Shown one piece after another: positions 14,131-21,389 of a stretch of DNA of 64,000 nt. Source of the DNA: Agromyces laixinhei (GTDB taxonomy: Bacteria > Actinomycetota > Actinomycetes > Actinomycetales > Microbacteriaceae); NCBI RefSeq assembly GCF_006337065.1, contig NZ_CP040872.1, positions 2,294,001 through 2,358,000 of the forward strand. The letters run 5' to 3'. Below the pieces are notes generated by a model that worked only from the letters and a program-made list of their open reading frames with translations, was not told the origin of the DNA and made no database searches. A program made the position numbers and the translations under genes. The number at the start of each line of letters is the position of its first letter. Position 1 is the stretch's first letter.

Positions 14131-15876
14131 TCAGGGCTGTGCGCCGCCCGGAACGCCGGCAGACGGGAACGCCGGCAGACGGCCGTGTTCGATCGTCACC
14201 ACGCGATCGACGAGTGACCGGTCGACCGGAGCATGCGAGATGAGCACCACACTGCAGCCGGTGCGAGTCGCGGCGTCGGTCAGATCGCGCAGCAGTGCGT
14301 CGGCATGCGCGGGGTCGACGCTCGCCGTCGGTTCGTCGAGCACGAGCACCGGAAAGCGGGCGAGCATCGCGCGGGCCAGTGCGATGCGCTGCGCCTGCCC
14401 ACCCGAGACGAGGGCGCCGCGCTCGCCCACCTTCGCGCCCAGTCCGCCGCGCTCATCGACCCAGTCGCGCAGGCCCACCCGGCCCAGCACCTCGAGCAGT
14501 TCGTCGTCGCTCGCCGTGTCGCGCGCGAAGATGAGGTTCTGGCGGACATCTTCGTCGAAGAGCCACGGTCGCTGCTCGACGAGGCCCACGAGGCCGCGCA
14601 CCTCGGCAGGATCGAGTGTCGAGGCTTCCACGCCGCCGAGCCGGTACGAGCCCGCGTAGTCGAGGAACCGAACCAGCACGTGGGCGAGCGTGGTCTTGCC
14701 CGCGCCGGATCCACCGCGGACGAGCAGGCGTTCGCCGGGTGCGATCGTGAGGTCGACGCGGTCCAGCGCTGCTCCCGTGCCGTCCGCGGTGACGCCTCCG
14801 GCGCCATCGGCGGCCGTCGGCGGCCAGCTCGCACGCACCCCGCGCAGCTCGATCATCGGCGGCCGATCGGACGCCGGCGGCGCGGCCGGCGCCACCGGCG
14901 CCAGGGGGATGCCGGCCGGCACCGTGTCGGGCACGGCGCTCGCGACTCGCGTGGCGCTCGCCCGCGCGAGTCGGAGCGACGATGCGGCGAGCGGCACGGC
15001 CGTCGCGACCTCTGCGATCGCGAGCGGCACGAGGCAGAGCATGGCGAAGGTCGGGCCGTCGATGCGGCCGTCGTGCAGAAGCGGCACCGCCGCCGCGAGG
15101 CTCGCGGCCACGGCGAAGCCGCCGATCGTGCTCATCGCCGCTGCCGCGACGCCCGTGGCTGCCGCGCGCGTGCGCGTCGCTCGCGCATACCGATCACCGA
15201 GTTCGTCGATGCGCCGACGACCGACTGCCGCGGCATCGAAGGCCACGAGCACGTCGAGCGTCTGCACGTACTCGACGACCGCCGCCTGCAGTTCGCCGCG
15301 AAGCGGCGCCGTCGTGCGCTCGGCCCGGGCGAGCGCACGCTGCTGCACGAGAAGCGCGCCGCCGATGCCCACGACGAGGCAGACGAGCACCGCGAGCGCC
15401 GACTGCGGTGCGATGAACCCGATGCCGACGACGGCGGCCGCGAGCACGATCGCCGCGCTCACGAGCGGCTGCACCGCCCGCAACGGCACGTTCTGCAGCT
15501 CGTCGACATCGCTCACGAATCGATCGAGCAGATCGCCTCGTCGCACGGACGCGATGCCGTCGGGGGCGACCGGCAGCATGCGCTCGAACACGTCCGAGCG
15601 GATCGCAGCGAGCTGCCTGAACGAGGCGTCGTGGCCGCTCAGTCGCTCGAGGTAGCGGAACACCGAGCGGCCGAGCGCGAACGCACGAACACCCACGATC
15701 GCCATCGAGAGGTACAGCACGGGGGGCTGCTCATCCGCACGCGCGATCAACCAGGCCGAACAGGCGAGCAGGACGACGCTCGATCCGGCCGAACCGATGC
15801 CGAACAGCACAGCAGGGGCGAACCGGCGCCAGTTCGGAATGGCACGGCGCAGGATGTCACGGGCCGGATCAGACAC
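14131..15876 (-). CDS. cydC: CydC half of the thiol-exporting ABC transporter CydDC
   Basis: A 581-residue ABC exporter subunit with an N-terminal six-helix membrane domain (about 15-300) and a C-terminal ATPase. Walker A GGSGAGKTT, signature VSGGQAQR and Walker B VLVLDEPTAS are all intact. In E. coli CydDC exports cysteine and glutathione and is needed to assemble cytochrome bd. The Ala/Pro-rich linker between the halves (about 325-375) is long. Its start overlaps the end of cydD by 8 bp, indicating translational coupling in a cydABDC operon. Assignment to CydC rather than a generic exporter rests largely on this context. Confidence 0.92.
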   Translation of the reverse strand: MSDPARDILRRAIPNWRRFAPAVLFGIGSAGSSVVLLACSAWLIARADEQPPVLYLSMAIVGVRAFALGRSVFRYLERLSGHDASFRQLAAIRSDVFERMLPVAPDGIASVRRGDLLDRFVSDVDELQNVPLRAVQPLVSAAIVLAAAVVGIGFIAPQSALAVLVCLVVGIGGALLVQQRALARAERTTAPLRGELQAAVVEYVQTLDVLVAFDAAAVGRRRIDELGDRYARATRTRAAATGVAAAAMSTIGGFAVAASLAAAVPLLHDGRIDGPTFAMLCLVPLAIAEVATAVPLAASSLRLARASATRVASAVPDTVPAGIPLAPVAPAAPPASDRPPMIELRGVRASWPPTAADGAGGVTADGTGAALDRVDLTIAPGERLLVRGGSGAGKTTLAHVLVRFLDYAGSYRLGGVEASTLDPAEVRGLVGLVEQRPWLFDEDVRQNLIFARDTASDDELLEVLGRVGLRDWVDERGGLGAKVGERGALVSGGQAQRIALARAMLARFPVLVLDEPTASVDPAHADALLRDLTDAATRTGCSVVLISHAPVDRSLVDRVVTIEHGRLPAFPSAGVPGGAQP

Positions 15877-17533
15877 GGGCCGCCTCCAACTCGATCACGC
15901 GGTCGGCGTCGTCGGCGAGTGCCGCGCGATGGGTCGACACGACGACGATCCGTCCCTCCGCGACGAGCTCGAGGAGCGCGCTGCCGAGCTCGGACTCGCG
16001 GCCGGCGTCCTGCGCAGAACTCGGCTCGTCGAGGAGCAGCAGCGGGGCGTCGCGAGCGAGCAGGCGATGGATCGCCCGAGCGGTCGCGACACGCTGCGCC
16101 TGACCGCCCGAGAGCCCGGAACCACCCGGTCCGAGCCGCAACTCGGGATCGAGGTCGACGCCCGCGAGCCGGCAGGCGCGAGTGCAGAGCGCGGGGTCGG
16201 CGTGCTCGTCGCCGAGCCTGACGTTCGAGGCGATCGTGCCGGCGAGCAGTGCCGTCGTCTGGCCCGACCACGCGATCTGCGACCGGCTGCTCGCGCCCTC
16301 ACCGGTGCGTGCACCGAGCCTTCCCCCATCGAGTCGGGCCTCCCCCTCGAACACCGCGAAGCCGAGCAGCGCGGAGAACAGGCTCGACTTGCCCGAGCCG
16401 CTCGCCCCGATCACCGCGACGAGCTCGCCCCGATGCGCCTCGAGATCGAAGCCGTCGAGCACGACCCGGTCACCGCGCAGGACCCGGATGCCGCGGAGCC
16501 GCAGCCCCTCACCGACATCCGCGATCTCGTCGGTTCCGTCGGTCTCGCCGATGTCATCGCATACCGGTGCCCGGCCCTCCCGCTCGCTCGCGTCGAGCAG
16601 GTCGAACGCGTCGACCGACGCTTCGACTCCCTCGGTCGAGGCGTGGAAGGCGGCGCCGACGTTCCGGAGCGGGAGGAAGACCTCGGGCGCGAGCACGAGC
16701 ACGAACAATCCCGCGATGAGGGTCATGTCGCCGACGACGAGTCGCAGGCCGATCGAGACGGCGACGAGGGCGACGGAGAGGCTCGCCGCGAATTCGAGGG
16801 TGAAGCCCGAGAGGAAGGTGATGCGCAGCACTTTCATGGCGTGTGAGCGGTAGTCGTCGGTCACGGCCCGGATCCGTGCCGTCTGCCGCTCGGCACGACG
16901 GAAGAGCAGCAGCGTCGACAGCCCGCCGACGACCTCGAGGAAGCCGCGTGAGAGTGTCGCGAGACTCTCCCACTGTCGTCGTTGCACGACCTGGGTGGCC
17001 ATGCCGATGAGCGCCATGAACACGGGGATGAGCGGCAGCACGATGACGAGCACGAGCCCCGAGAGCGGGTCGGCGAACCACGCCATCGTGACGAGCACGG
17101 GCGTGACGACGATCGTCGACACGAGCTGCGGCAGATACTGCCCGAAGTACGCGTCGAGCGCGTCGAGGCCGGGCCCGAGCAGCGTCGCGATGCGCGCGGT
17201 CGGAAAACCGGGCAGCCCCTCCGGGTCGGCCTCGAGCGCCTCGAGCAGTTCGCGCCTCAGCTCACCCTTCACCCGGGTGGCGCCGGCCGTGCCCACGACG
17301 TCCCACGCCCACGCGGCGGCGGCGCGAACGGATGCCGCGGCGACGAGCAGCACGAGCAGCGACACGGCCTCGGGCATTCGCCTGCCGTCGAGGATGCCCG
17401 TCACGAGGGTGGCGAGCGCCCACGCGAACGCGACGATGGCGCCGCTCTGCACGAGCGCCAGGGCACCGCCGGCGGCAATGAAGCGGCGGGCGGATCGGGA
17501 GCGGCGAAGGAGCCGCGGATCGAGCGGTTTCAC
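15869..17533 (-). CDS. cydD: CydD half of the thiol-exporting ABC transporter CydDC
   Basis: A 554-residue membrane ABC subunit, the partner of CydC. The membrane domain spans roughly 20-300 ('GAIVAFAWALATLVTGIL' is the first helix); the ATPase shows GASGSGKSS, LSGGQAQR and LLLLDEPSSAQD. The aspartate after SSAQ replaces the usual SVD of the D-loop, a small oddity common in CydD. It begins next to the cydB stop with no intergenic base, so the four cyd genes are one operon. Start is an ATG at 17533; the length is normal. Confidence 0.93.
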   Translation of the reverse strand: MKPLDPRLLRRSRSARRFIAAGGALALVQSGAIVAFAWALATLVTGILDGRRMPEAVSLLVLLVAAASVRAAAAWAWDVVGTAGATRVKGELRRELLEALEADPEGLPGFPTARIATLLGPGLDALDAYFGQYLPQLVSTIVVTPVLVTMAWFADPLSGLVLVIVLPLIPVFMALIGMATQVVQRRQWESLATLSRGFLEVVGGLSTLLLFRRAERQTARIRAVTDDYRSHAMKVLRITFLSGFTLEFAASLSVALVAVSIGLRLVVGDMTLIAGLFVLVLAPEVFLPLRNVGAAFHASTEGVEASVDAFDLLDASEREGRAPVCDDIGETDGTDEIADVGEGLRLRGIRVLRGDRVVLDGFDLEAHRGELVAVIGASGSGKSSLFSALLGFAVFEGEARLDGGRLGARTGEGASSRSQIAWSGQTTALLAGTIASNVRLGDEHADPALCTRACRLAGVDLDPELRLGPGGSGLSGGQAQRVATARAIHRLLARDAPLLLLDEPSSAQDAGRESELGSALLELVAEGRIVVVSTHRAALADDADRVIELEAARV

Positions 17534-18538
17534 CTAGTGCGCAGCCGCCTCGATCGTGTCGCGTGAGACGCGTTTGCGGAAGACCCAGTACGTCCAGCCC
17601 TGGTAGAGGAGCACGAGCGGAAGGAAGACCACGGCGACCCAGCTCATGACGGTGAGCGTGTACGTCGAGCTCGAGGCGTTCACGATCGTGAGGCTGTTCG
17701 CCGGGTCGTTCGATGCCGGCATCACGTCGGGGAACAACGCGGCGAAGAGCGCGAACACCGCGGCCGCGACCGTGACGGCCAGCAGGGTGAAGGCGATGCC
17801 CTCCGCGCCGCGCAGGTTGGCGAGCCATCCGCCGATCAATGCGATCGCGGCGACGACCGCGAGGATCCAGAACCAGGGTGTGCCGTATGCGAGACCCGTC
17901 CAGAGCAGGAACGCGGCAGCGACGACGATCGTGATGAGACCCGACTTCGCGGCGAGGCGCCGGGCGCGCTCGCGCAACTCGCCCTCGGTCTTCAGCGAGG
18001 CGAAGATGACCCCGTGGGTGAAGAAGAGCAGCAGCGTCGTGAGACCGCCGAGCAGCGCGTACGGGTTCAGCAGATCGAAGAGCGTGCCCGTGTAGTTGTG
18101 ATCCGCGTCGAGGGGCACCCCCTGCACGATGTTCGCGAACGCGACGCCCCAGAGCAGTGCCGGCACGGCGGAGCCCACGACGATCATGCCGTCGAACCAC
18201 TTCTTCCACTTCGACTCGGGTCGCTGATGGCGGTACTCGAACGAGACGCCGCGAGCGATGAGCGCGAGCAGGATGAGGAGCAATGCGAGGTAGAACCCCG
18301 AGAAGAGCGTGGCATACCACTCGGGGAACGCCGCGAAGAGCGAGGCTCCCGCGACGATCACCCACGTCTCGTTGAGATCCCAGACGGGGCCGATCGTGTT
18401 GATGAGCACGCGGCGATCGGTGTCGTCCCTGCCGAGGAACGGGAGGGACATGCCGACGCCGAAGTCGAAGCCGTCGAGCACGAAGTAGCCGACGAAGAGG
18501 AACGCGACGATCCAGAACCAGAGCACTGTGAGATCCAT
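17534..18538 (-). CDS. cydB: cytochrome bd ubiquinol/menaquinol oxidase subunit II
   Basis: A 334-residue integral membrane subunit of the high-affinity terminal oxidase bd, which reduces oxygen to water using quinol without pumping protons. The family N-terminus 'LWFWIVAFLFVGYFVLDGFDFG' is intact, followed by several hydrophobic helices and 'GPVWDLNETWVI', a strongly conserved CydB motif. It has a good ribosome-binding site (AGAAGGACA). It starts 12 bp after the cydA stop and is followed immediately by cydD. Confidence 0.96.
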   Translation of the reverse strand: MDLTVLWFWIVAFLFVGYFVLDGFDFGVGMSLPFLGRDDTDRRVLINTIGPVWDLNETWVIVAGASLFAAFPEWYATLFSGFYLALLLILLALIARGVSFEYRHQRPESKWKKWFDGMIVVGSAVPALLWGVAFANIVQGVPLDADHNYTGTLFDLLNPYALLGGLTTLLLFFTHGVIFASLKTEGELRERARRLAAKSGLITIVVAAAFLLWTGLAYGTPWFWILAVVAAIALIGGWLANLRGAEGIAFTLLAVTVAAAVFALFAALFPDVMPASNDPANSLTIVNASSSTYTLTVMSWVAVVFLPLVLLYQGWTYWVFRKRVSRDTIEAAAH

Positions 18539-18550
18539 GGCGGTGTCCTT

Positions 18551-19963
18551 CTAGTAGACCGTCGAGGCGGGCTCGACGCGGCCGGTTTCGGGATCGGGTT
18601 CGCCGACTTCCGGCGGGCCCTTCCGGATGGCGCGGATGATGAGGCGCACCTCGACGACGGCGAGGGCGCCGTAGATGAGGGTGAACGCCACGAGCGAGAT
18701 GAGCACGTCGAGTCCGGTCACGTTCGGCGAGACGGCCGATTCCGTCGGCAGCAGGCTGAACACGATCCAGGGCTGACGCCCCATCTCGGTGAAGACCCAG
18801 CCGACGATCATCGCGGCGAGCGAGAGCGGGAAGCTCCAGACGGCGACCCTCCAGATCCACGTCTGCTTCGGCATCCGTCCCCGACGTGTCAGCCAGAGGC
18901 CGACGACGGCGACGAGCACGTGGGCGAGCCCGAGGCCGATCATCCAGCGGAACGACCAGTACGTGACCCAGATGATCGGCGTGTAGTCGCCGGGTCCGTA
19001 GAGCTCCTGGTACTGCGCCTGCAGATCGTTGATGCCTTCGACGCAGCCGTCGAAGGTGTGTGTCGACAGGAACGAGAGCAGGTAGGGCACGCGGATCGAG
19101 AAGAGCTCGGTCGAGCCGTCGGGGGTGCCGAGGGTGAAGATCGAGAAGGAGGCGTCCGCGCCGCACGCCGTGTCGTACATCGCCTCGGCCGCCGCCATCT
19201 TCATCGGCTGGGTCGCGACCATGGCGAGGCTCAGCTGGTCGCCGAACAGGGTCGTGAGGATGCCGGAACCGACCATCACCCAGAGGCCGAACTTCAGGGC
19301 GGGACGCATGGTGTCGAGGTGCTGATTGCGGGCGAGGTGCCACGCGGCGGCGCTGATGATGAGACCGGCCGACACCATGAAGCTCGCGGCGATCGTATGC
19401 GGAAACGCTGCGAGCGCGACCGGATTGGCGAGCAGTTCGCCGATGTCGACGAGTTCGGCACGGCCTCGCTCGACGTTCATCTCGTAGCCGACCGGGTTCT
19501 GCATGAACGCGTTCGCGGCGATGATGAAATACGCCGAGACGATCGAGCCGATAGCGGTGCACCAGATGGTGGCGAGGTGGAGTCCGCGCGGGAGCTTGTC
19601 CCAGCCGAAGATCCAGAGTCCGATGAAGGTCGCCTCGAAGAAGAAGGCGAGCAGACCCTCGAGCGCGAGCGGGGCGCCGAAGACATCGCCGACGAATCGT
19701 GAATACTCCGACCAGTTCATGCCGAACTGGAACTCCTGCACGATGCCGGTGACGACGCCCATCGCGAAGTTGATGAGGAAGATCGTGCCGAAGAATCTCG
19801 TGATCCTCAGGTACTCGGCCTTCCCCGTGCGGTGCCAGGCCGTCTGGAAGACGGCCGTCGAGGTCGCGAGTCCGATCGTGATCGGCACGAAGAGGAAGTG
19901 GTAGACGGTGGTGAGCCCGAACTGCCACCGGGAGAGAAGCAGCGGATCCAGCAACTCGTTCAA
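18551..19963 (-). CDS. cydA: cytochrome bd oxidase subunit I
   Basis: A 470-residue haem-binding subunit (b558, b595 and d haems) carrying the quinol site. Typical segments include 'DPLLLSRWQFGLTTVYHFLFVP' at the N-terminus, 'GMNWSEYSRFVGDVFGAPLALEGL' and 'EMGRQPWIVF'. I prefer a TTG start at 19963 (MNELLDPLLL): AAAGGGA lies about 8 bp upstream. The alternative GTG at 19981 would put that ribosome-binding site inside the gene. It is first in cydABDC and divergent from the BlaI-type gene; the tandem operator at 20007-20045 lies within its promoter region, suggesting control by that repressor (inference). Confidence 0.95.
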   Translation of the reverse strand: MNELLDPLLLSRWQFGLTTVYHFLFVPITIGLATSTAVFQTAWHRTGKAEYLRITRFFGTIFLINFAMGVVTGIVQEFQFGMNWSEYSRFVGDVFGAPLALEGLLAFFFEATFIGLWIFGWDKLPRGLHLATIWCTAIGSIVSAYFIIAANAFMQNPVGYEMNVERGRAELVDIGELLANPVALAAFPHTIAASFMVSAGLIISAAAWHLARNQHLDTMRPALKFGLWVMVGSGILTTLFGDQLSLAMVATQPMKMAAAEAMYDTACGADASFSIFTLGTPDGSTELFSIRVPYLLSFLSTHTFDGCVEGINDLQAQYQELYGPGDYTPIIWVTYWSFRWMIGLGLAHVLVAVVGLWLTRRGRMPKQTWIWRVAVWSFPLSLAAMIVGWVFTEMGRQPWIVFSLLPTESAVSPNVTGLDVLISLVAFTLIYGALAVVEVRLIIRAIRKGPPEVGEPDPETGRVEPASTVY

Positions 19964-20006: not shown

Positions 20007-20045
20007 TTCTACGCACGGTAGAACTTTCTTCTACCGAGAGTAGAA
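20007..20045. promoter_or_regulatory. tandem operator, four half-sites at 11-bp spacing, probable BlaI-type site
   Basis: The half-site TTCTAC starts at 20007 and 20029, and its complement GTAGAA starts at 20018 and 20040. Every half-site is separated from the next by exactly 5 bp, giving two TTCTAC-N5-GTAGAA dyads and a third in the middle, all phased by 11 bp, about one helical turn. It sits between divergent cydA and the BlaI-type gene. BlaI/MecI repressors bind such tandem dyads, so it probably autoregulates that gene and may also control cydABDC. Confidence 0.75.
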
Positions 20046-20075
20046 CATTTCACCGACGGCCGGTAATCTGGACGT

Positions 20076-20450
20076 ATGGCGAGTCTGGGCGAACTGGAGC
20101 GCTCCGTGATGGAGGTGCTGTGGTCGCGCGACGCCGAGCTCACGGCGAACGAACTGCGCGATGAGCTCGCGCATCGCGGCGGCGAGCCCGGGCGTTCCGT
20201 CGCGACGACGACGATGCTCACGGTGCTGTCACGACTCGAGCGCAAGGGGTTCGTGTCGCGCGCGCGCGACACCCGCCCCCACCGCTACCAGGCGCTCCTG
20301 ACCCGTGAAGAGCACACCGCTGAGCTCATGCACGAAGTGCTCGACCGCGCGAGCGATCGCGATGCCGCGCTCGCACGATTCGTCGGCACGGTGAGTGCCG
20401 GAGAGGCCGCGACGCTGCGGCGAATCCTCGACGGCCTCCCCCGATCCTGA
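20076..20450 (+). CDS. BlaI/MecI/CopY family transcriptional repressor
   Basis: A 124-residue protein with the whole BlaI architecture: an N-terminal winged helix ('LGELERSVMEVLWSRDAELTANEL', recognition helix 'TTMLTVLSRLERKGFV', wing 'RPHRYQALL') and a C-terminal helical dimerisation region. In staphylococci and mycobacteria, BlaI is inactivated by a BlaR1-type membrane metallopeptidase. The next gene, 2 bp downstream, encodes such an M56 peptidase. Its own promoter region carries two perfect operator dyads. No beta-lactamase gene is in the window; the only neighbour across the operator is cydABDC. Confidence 0.93.
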   Translation: MASLGELERSVMEVLWSRDAELTANELRDELAHRGGEPGRSVATTTMLTVLSRLERKGFVSRARDTRPHRYQALLTREEHTAELMHEVLDRASDRDAALARFVGTVSAGEAATLRRILDGLPRS

Positions 20451-20452
20451 CG

Positions 20453-21389
20453 ATGCTCGCCGTCGCCGCACTGCTCGGCGGGTTCGCCCTCCTGCTCGCC
20501 TGGCCCGTTCCCCTCGCGCTCTCGCGCGCCTCGTGGCCCGCCCGATCGCCGGCGATCGCTCTCGCGCTCTGGCAGGCGATCGCGCTCGGCGGCGGTCTCT
20601 CGATGATCGGCTGCCTGCTCGTCTTCGGCGCCTCCCCGGCCGGTTCGCTGCTGGGCGCCGCCGAAGCGCTCCTCCCCCGGCTGTTCTTCGGCCCGATCCC
20701 GCCCGAATTCGGCGTCGTGCACCTCGCGGCTCTTCACCCTCGCAGCGGGGCTCGCGCTCCACCTCGCCCTCAACCTCGCGCTGACCGCGGTGCGTGCCGA
20801 GCGCGAACGCCGCCGCCAGCACCAGCTCATCGACCTGCTCAGCGACCCGATGCCCGGTCAGCCCAGCACCCGGGTACTGGCCCATCCGGCTCCCCTCGCC
20901 TACTGCGTGCCGGGCATTCGTACGGCGACCGTGCTCACCGAAGGCCTCGTCGACGCCCTCGACGAGGCCGAGCTGCGCGCCGTCATCGCGCACGAACGCG
21001 CGCACCTCGACCAGCTCCACCACCTCGTGCTCCTGGCGTTCCGAGCCTGGCACAGCGCCCTGCCCTGGTTCCCGATCGCCAACCGCGCCGAGCGATCCGT
21101 CGCGCTCCTCGCCGAGATGCTCGCCGACGACCGCGCCCGCCGCGAAGCGGATGACGACGCGCTTCGTCGCGCGATGCTGCAGGTGGGCAGCGACGGCGAA
21201 CCCGGAGCGTATTCCGAGTCGGGCGGCGTCGTTCCCGACGCGATGATGCTCGATGCACGGCTCGCCCGCCTCGACGATTCGCAGCGCCCCTCCGGGCCGC
21301 TGACCGGCTCGGCCGTGGTGTGGGCCGCCGCGGTCATCGTCGCCGTGCCGGTCGTCGCCCTGGTCGCCACCCTCGGCGCGGTCGTCTGA
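20453..21389 (+). pseudogene. BlaR1-like M56 membrane metallopeptidase, apparent 1-bp insertion
   Basis: Membrane zinc protease of the M56/BlaR1 family, expected to sense a signal and trigger loss of the BlaI repressor. The first frame gives two hydrophobic segments and ends in the third at 'VVHLAAL'; the remainder, 'RAERERRRQHQ' onwards, lies in another frame. It has the metal motif HERAH (20991-21005), 'MLADDRARREADD' as the third-ligand region, and a final membrane segment. Removing one G in CGCGGCTCTT near 20725 restores 'LFTLAAGLALHLALNLAL' and a 311-residue protein without a PBP-like sensor domain. It follows the repressor gene by 2 bp. The break could be error or real; everything else looks functional. 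Confidence 0.85.

What the first reader, a model, noticed from the sequence alone, without database searches (positions are those of the whole stretch)
20007..20045. Perfect tandem operator: four TTCTAC/GTAGAA half-sites phased by 11 bp
Half-sites start at 20007, 20018, 20029 and 20040, alternating in orientation with identical 5-bp spacers. Chance occurrence of four exact hexamers at this spacing is very small. It lies between a BlaI-type repressor gene and divergent cydA. BlaI proteins bind tandem dyads, so this is a likely high-affinity cooperative site.
Basis: partly seen in the sequence, partly recalled or inferred. Interest (0 to 1): 0.72.

Follow-up and report, generated by a model that had tools for sequence, protein, structure and literature searches.

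The report
BlaI operator controlling cytochrome bd genes
Two neat palindromes between a repressor gene and the genes for a backup respiratory enzyme are very probably that repressor's binding sites, and the same arrangement recurs in many actinobacteria, so this looks like a conserved switch for respiration rather than for penicillin resistance.

Summary
In detail: TTCTAC-N5-GTAGAA occurs twice, 22 bp apart (20007-20023, 20029-20045), far beyond chance. The 3.44 Mb genome holds three exact dyads: two here, one before a flavohemoglobin gene. Its only Penicillinase_R protein is the adjacent blaI. Among 150 genomes of the family, 55 of 59 with a BlaI orthologue hold the dyad, against 2 of 62 without BlaI and 0 of 34 with cydA but no BlaI. 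Of 120 tandem-dyad loci from a collection scan, 103 have cydA within 450 bp. In ten mycobacteria-like genomes where blaI and cydA are apart, a sister dyad precedes cydA in all ten. Best reading: a BlaI operator that autorepresses blaI and controls divergent cydABDC, probably relieved by the protease encoded beside blaI (frameshifted here). BlaI binding at cyd and atp promoters is already reported for Mycobacterium tuberculosis (PMC5473688, passages), so the kind is known; the linked arrangement, the TTCTAC half-site and the hmp target are added. Binding was not tested; the 11-bp phasing is not a conserved rule (usual pitch 24-25 bp).

The parts
20007..20023 (.). operator dyad 1 (cydA-proximal), TTCTAC-GCACG-GTAGAA
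   Evidence: kept in 3 of the 5 loci aligned (window included)
20029..20045 (.). operator dyad 2 (blaI-proximal), TTCTAC-CGAGA-GTAGAA, at -48..-32 of the blaI start, i.e. over the expected -35 region
   Evidence: both half-sites unchanged in 5 of 5 aligned loci
20064..20069 (+). putative -10 element TAATCT of a leaderless blaI transcript
   Evidence: TANNNT just before an in-frame start in 45 of 59 family blaI loci versus 28 of 2950 random positions in the same loci. Inferred, no transcript data
20076..20450 (+). blaI: BlaI/MecI-type repressor, 124 aa, the only PF03965 match of the genome
20453..21389 (+). membrane metalloprotease gene (M48/M56-like, HExxH), reading frame shifted by one base near 20730; an intact orthologue of 311 aa exists in Agromyces fucosus
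18551..19963 (-). cydA, cytochrome bd oxidase subunit I (ORF open from GTG 19981; TTG 19963 aligns with the start codon of most relatives shown)
17534..18538 (-). cydB, cytochrome bd oxidase subunit II
15869..17533 (-). cydD, ABC exporter subunit for bd assembly
   Evidence: TIGR02857 above its cut-off
14131..15876 (-). cydC, ABC exporter subunit for bd assembly
   Evidence: TIGR02868 above its cut-off

Best explanation
The array is the operator of the adjacent BlaI-type repressor. Shown by sequence: two exact 17-bp dyads in the divergent blaI-cydABDC promoter region, conserved together with the repressor and with cydA across Microbacteriaceae and part of the other actinobacteria. Inferred: a BlaI dimer sits on each dyad; the blaI-proximal dyad covers the -35 region of a leaderless blaI promoter (autorepression) and the pair as a whole represses cydABDC; a third dyad represses a flavohemoglobin gene (hmp) elsewhere. 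Inferred by analogy with BlaR1/BlaI: the membrane metalloprotease encoded right after blaI destroys BlaI when respiration is disturbed, which releases cytochrome bd and the NO-detoxifying flavohemoglobin. In this particular sequence the protease gene is frameshifted, so the relief step may be broken, or the shift is a sequencing error.
For: Exact dyad in 55 of 59 genomes with BlaI >=100 bits (145 dyads), 10 of 29 with weaker BlaI (16), 2 of 62 without BlaI (2), 0 of 34 with cydA but no BlaI. Of the 145, 109 lie at blaI loci. cydA divergent next to blaI in 58 of 59. Independent scan: 103 of 120 tandem-dyad loci have CydA's N-terminus and 99 of 120 BlaI within 450 bp. The link survives unlinking: in 10 of 10 mycobacteria-like genomes the sister dyad TACKAC-N5-GTAGTA precedes cydA although blaI is elsewhere. 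hmp: dyad upstream in 6 of 7 BlaI-high genomes that have hmp, 0 of 10 others (Fisher 0.0006, not corrected for kinship). Promoter geometry. Recognition-helix residues differ between BlaI proteins with TTCTAC and TACTAC operators. Published: M. tuberculosis BlaI binds the promoters of cytochrome bd and ATP synthase genes (PMC5473688, passages).
Against: No binding or expression data for this organism. Genomes of one family share ancestry, so the counts are not independent events (of the four genera with both a BlaI-high and a BlaI-free member, g38, g69 and g80 agree and g72 is uninformative). 4 of 59 BlaI-high genomes lack an exact dyad (G134, G049, G097, G064). Class-wide the linkage is not universal: of 47 blaI loci viewed, 23 show a divergent CydA match, 1 a downstream one and 23 none in the 2.6-4 kb held. 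No convincing cydA promoter was found relative to the dyads, so repression of cydA rather than another effect is inferred. The inducing signal is unknown. The recognition-helix contrast rests on 4 TACTAC cases.
Confidence: 0.88

Rival explanations
1. The array only autoregulates blaI and its protease; cydA is divergent by chance of gene order.
For: Weaker BlaI proteins of the family also have dyads beside blaI without cydA in the locus, e.g. L053 and L078 and L137.
Against: Dyads stand at cydA without blaI next door: L056 and L057 and 10 of 10 mycobacteria-like genomes. Two strongly diverged cydA types (about 74-88% and about 42-49% identical to this one in the relatives) are both paired with the same kind of regulator and dyads.
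Confidence: 0.06
2. Another transcription factor, not BlaI, owns the TTCTAC-N5-GTAGAA dyad.
For: No binding assay exists here.
Against: Presence follows BlaI, not cydA (0 of 34 cydA-positive BlaI-negative genomes). Half-site variants go with BlaI recognition-helix variants (few cases). The same tandem dyad stands before BlaI-M56 pairs in two Oscillospiraceae records (L222, L271).
Confidence: 0.04
3. A beta-lactam-responsive switch as in staphylococcal BlaR1/BlaI.
For: Repressor family and paired membrane metalloprotease.
Against: The intact orthologue of the protease (311 aa) matches only M48 and, weakly, M56 among meaningful Pfam families, no penicillin-binding domain. The genes beside the 3 exact dyads of the genome are blaI, cydA, hmp and an MFS-like transporter (the last named by eye), none a beta-lactamase. 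The TACANNTGTA core (recalled) is absent from the window.
Confidence: 0.03
4. Chance palindromes without function.
For: None beyond the possibility.
Against: Expectation about 1e-12 and conservation across genera.
Confidence: 0.005

Closest known systems
Mycobacterium tuberculosis BlaI (Rv1846c)/BlaR (Rv1845c) regulon
   Same: Same protein family (only PDB hit 2g9w; that 2g9w is Rv1846c is recalled, the record says 'conserved hypothetical protein'); paired protease without beta-lactam sensor domain and cytochrome bd and ATP synthase promoters as targets (PMC5473688 passages); in mycobacteria-like genomes the same 17-bp TAC-N5-GTA dyad layout.
   Different: Here blaI is divergent from and adjacent to cydABDC; half-site TTCTAC instead of TACKAC; hmp carries a dyad; no beta-lactamase beside an exact dyad.
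Staphylococcal/Bacillus BlaI-BlaR1 and MecI-MecR1
   Same: Repressor of PF03965, protease partner gene, dyad operators in a divergent promoter region (the last recalled for those systems).
   Different: No sensor domain found, no beta-lactamase or mecA beside the dyads, TACANNTGTA core (recalled) absent from the window.
CopY/TcrY copper repressors
   Same: Weak NCBIfam similarity, TIGR02698 35 bits.
   Different: Far under the 122-bit cut-off; the neighbours scanned are cyd genes, the protease and a VTT-domain protein; no TACANNTGTA.

Membership tests
BlaI/MecI repressor family (PF03965) | Penicillinase_R domain above the curated cut-off | tested here: met
   82.4 bits versus 22.6, residues 4-119
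BlaI/MecI repressor family (PF03965) | protease partner gene directly downstream | tested here: met
   M48/M56-like ORF opens right after the blaI stop (20450, 20453); frameshifted here, open in L216, L158 and L159
BlaR1/BlaI beta-lactam response system | partner carries an extracellular penicillin-binding sensor domain | tested here: not met
   intact orthologue of 311 aa has an M48 and a weak M56 match, no penicillin-binding domain
BlaR1/BlaI beta-lactam response system | operator controls a beta-lactamase or PBP2a gene | tested here: not met
   the exact dyads of the genome are at blaI-cydA and hmp only; weaker sites not excluded
BlaR1/BlaI beta-lactam response system | TACANNTGTA-type operator core (recalled) | tested here: not met
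   0 matches in the window
Actinobacterial BlaI respiratory regulon (M. tuberculosis type) | cydA promoter region carries the BlaI dyad | tested here: met
Actinobacterial BlaI respiratory regulon (M. tuberculosis type) | ATP synthase operon carries the dyad | tested here: inconclusive
   no exact dyad there in this genome; present at atpB in 3 other family genomes (L090, L104, L151) and upstream of atp genes in 9 of 10 mycobacteria-like genomes
Actinobacterial BlaI respiratory regulon (M. tuberculosis type) | direct BlaI binding | not testable with these tools
   needs EMSA or DAP-seq

The most novel reading that the evidence does not exclude
The original and main job of BlaI and its sensor-less membrane protease in actinobacteria is to sense respiratory or nitric-oxide distress through the membrane and switch on cytochrome bd plus flavohemoglobin (and, lineage by lineage, ctaC, atpB, pta, ppk2, qcrB), and beta-lactamase control is a late side branch.
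Probability: 0.45. Interest if true: 0.65.

Novelty: new member of a known kind. Interest (0 to 1): 0.45.

Why it matters
It turns a 39-bp curiosity into a compact, testable regulon (in this genome, exact dyads at only two promoter regions) in soil-type actinobacteria, where the open question of what a BlaR-type protease without a beta-lactam sensor perceives can be attacked directly. It also suggests that control of cytochrome bd by BlaI, known by binding in M. tuberculosis, is a conserved core over a good part of the class.

Tried and rejected
Chance and coding-bias explanation: rejected by the BlaI-negative genomes (2 dyads in 62), although the reversed control pattern is not rare (31, 8 and 24 occurrences in the three groups).

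Perfect 11-bp phasing as the essential feature: rejected; pitches run from 17 to 56 bp, mostly 22-25, commonest 24.

A cydA -10 element inside or just after the dyads: looked for by eye in 25 loci, not found convincingly.

Extending the regulon of this genome with near matches: of 57 forward matches with up to 2 mismatches (exact ones included) I viewed 12 further loci (L004-L010, L012-L016). In 10 the site falls inside a called gene, in L004 at the junction of two genes, in L013 there is no call. Not used.

Tandem-dyad hits in Bacteroidota (L189, L215, L240), Verrucomicrobiales (L194) and one Clostridia record (L172): 3 to 4 copies at about 41-42 bp in the first three, a repetitive ORF, or no recognisable target; treated as probable unrelated repeats.

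Paper searches on BlaI with cyd, flavohemoglobin, ATP synthase, Arthrobacter, Rv1845c or RegX3: I recognised no paper on BlaI control of cyd outside mycobacteria in the listings. Passages were read of PMC12565901, PMC4757040, PMC8265638, PMC5874750, PMC10581053, PMC8457756 and PMC5473688 only. The library is open-access only; Sala et al. 2009 is cited there but I did not see it: known to me through citing papers and recall.

Full report
What is there. Window 20007-20045 holds two exact 17-bp dyads, TTCTAC-N5-GTAGAA, with a 22-bp pitch. They lie between cydA (on the minus strand, translation probably from TTG 19963) and blaI (20076-20450, plus strand). cydB, cydD and cydC follow cydA. A metalloprotease gene follows blaI. 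The closest named locus seen is Agromyces fucosus (L216: BlaI 88.7%, CydA 93.6% identical).

Rarity. The first-order Markov expectation is 0.0022 exact dyads per genome and about 1.5e-12 for the four-half-site array. The whole genome (3,437,203 bases) holds three exact dyads. The third is centred 60 bp upstream of L001:1569-2741, a protein with globin, FAD-binding and NAD-binding domains, i.e. a flavohemoglobin.

Link to BlaI. The genome has one PF03965 match, the adjacent blaI. In 150 family genomes: BlaI >=100 bits in 59, weaker in 29, none at E<=0.001 in 62. Exact dyads are found in 55 of 59, 10 of 29 and 2 of 62 respectively; among the 34 BlaI-free genomes with cydA, 0. The reversed control pattern follows BlaI far less (30 of 59, 8 of 29, 19 of 62 genomes). 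Ancestry is shared, so the Fisher value is not a true probability. Four genera have both a BlaI-high and a BlaI-free member: g38 (G111 with BlaI, 2 dyads; G037 without, 0), g69 (G132, 2; G068, 0) and g80 (G143, 1; G080, 0) agree; g72 is uninformative (G134 has BlaI but no exact dyad, G071 has neither).

Link to cydA. In 58 of the 59 BlaI-high loci cydA is divergent and next door (the exception is G097, L131). Two diverged cydA types (74-88% and 42-49% identical to this one) share the arrangement. Class-wide it is not universal: of 47 blaI loci viewed, 23 show a divergent CydA match (some only about 30% identical and several hundred bases away), 1 a downstream one and 23 none in the stretch held.

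Mycobacteria-like genomes. In 10 genomes of family f7, the TACKAC-N5-GTAGTA form of the dyad precedes cydA in 10 of 10 (L347, L356, L358-L361, L371-L374), while the BlaI places listed for these genomes lie elsewhere. It stands at blaI in 9 of 10 (not G285), counting hits whose coordinates match the blaI places where no locus was drawn. It stands upstream of an AtpI-like or AtpB gene in 9 of 10 (not G285): AtpB by tblastn in 4 of these 9, ATP-synt_I by Pfam in L349, the rest by eye. Other hits of the same pattern have no such theme (e.g. L348, L354, L355, L363, L370, L378-L380, L382), and the reversed control is about half as frequent or more, so single hits are weak evidence; the recurrence at the same genes is the argument. 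That f7 is mycobacterial is inferred: in the 7 of these 10 whose blaI I fetched, the recognition helix closely resembles that of 2g9w. PMC5473688 (passages) states that M. tuberculosis BlaI binds cytochrome bd and ATP synthase promoters, citing Sala et al. 2009; PMC12565901 (passages) reports EMSA binding upstream of Rv1303, co-transcribed with the ATP synthase genes.

Other sites in the family. The 59 BlaI-high genomes hold 145 exact dyads: 109 at blaI loci and 36 at 34 other places, all viewed. By downstream gene: hmp 6 places (4 genera), ctaC 3 (2 genera), atpB 3 (2 genera), pta 3 (1 genus), adenosine deaminase 2 (1 genus), DUF1254 2 (1 genus), an unnamed protein that looks membrane-bound, downstream of a YceI gene, 2 (1 genus), moaB/MFS 1, pyrophosphatase/tilS 1, and 11 without a clear theme (L080, L083, L099, L102, L103, L142, L145, L146, L149, L155, L156; no gene was called near the site in L155 and L156). 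hmp at places other than L001 is by tblastn. Tandem dyads outside this set stand before PPK2 (L182), a cytochrome b (L256, bc1 type by eye) and a PepSY_TM protein (L250). For hmp as a whole: 17 of 150 genomes have it at E<=1e-60; a dyad is upstream in 6 of 7 BlaI-high genomes, and no dyad with 0 or 1 mismatch lies anywhere in the roughly 4.1 kb loci of the 10 others (5 with weaker BlaI, 5 without). The second hmp copy of this genome (L345) and that of G084 have none.

Mechanism. TANNNT stands just before an in-frame blaI start in 45 of 59 loci (random positions: 28 of 2950), which suggests a leaderless transcript. A dyad begins at exactly -48 in 20 of 59 loci (17 exact, 3 with one mismatch), covering the -35 region; in others (e.g. 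L023, L031, L034) the half-site plus T, GTAGAAT, itself supplies the -10-like element. Occlusion of RNA polymerase, hence autorepression, is the simplest reading. For cydA no clear promoter was placed, so repression there is inferred. BlaI proteins of the 163 loci with TTCTAC operators (some genomes are in twice) mostly carry VLSRLEKKGF-type recognition helices, while the 4 with TACTAC carry LAYTTVMTVLDRL. One of those 4 (L140) is in this family, so the contrast is not only one of clades, but the number is small. Five aligned same-genus or Agromyces loci keep the half-sites of the blaI-proximal dyad unchanged, and three of five keep the second dyad.

Relief step. The partner gene is a short membrane-type metalloprotease (HERAH motif), 311 aa in A. 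fucosus, with an M48 match, a weak M56 match and no penicillin-binding domain. In this window its frame shifts by one base near 20730. What it senses is unknown. The target set (bd oxidase, NO dioxygenase, terminal oxidase, ATP synthase, polyphosphate and acetate energy enzymes) points to respiratory or nitrosative distress; this is inference.

Verdict. A real, conserved array that is best read as the BlaI operator at blaI and cydABDC. A member of a known kind, with a linked arrangement, a TTCTAC half-site and an hmp target for which I found no description in the papers searched. Numbers corrected on re-check: the pitch total, the identity ranges of the cydA types and the class-wide counts; names of hmp, YceI, AtpI and ResB/cytochrome c assembly were confirmed.

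Noticed in passing
window 20453-21389, near 20730: The protease gene paired with blaI is split by a one-base frame shift; same-genus relatives have it open. Real inactivation or sequencing error is undecided.
   Followed up: partly
L345 (G000:C1:644552-645748): A second flavohemoglobin gene in the same genome (globin, FAD, NAD domains) has no dyad with 0 or 1 mismatch in its locus, so only one copy would be under BlaI.
   Followed up: partly
L004:1501-1517 (G000:C1:63545): A one-mismatch dyad at the junction of a ResB gene and a cytochrome c assembly gene, just before the start of the latter; chance or a third respiratory target.
   Followed up: partly
L088 and L089: Exact dyad downstream of a YceI gene and upstream of a 337-387 aa protein that looks membrane-bound and has no Pfam or NCBIfam match; an orphan candidate for respiration or NO stress.
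   Followed up: partly
L222, L271: Oscillospiraceae BlaI-M56 gene pairs (PF03965 and PF05569) carry the same tandem TTCTAC-N5-GTAGAA dyads, so this half-site is used well outside actinobacteria.
   Followed up: partly
loci, e.g. L023, L025, L028 versus L021, L024: Two very different cydA types sit next to the same kind of blaI and dyads, as if the oxidase was replaced while the regulator cassette stayed.
   Followed up: no
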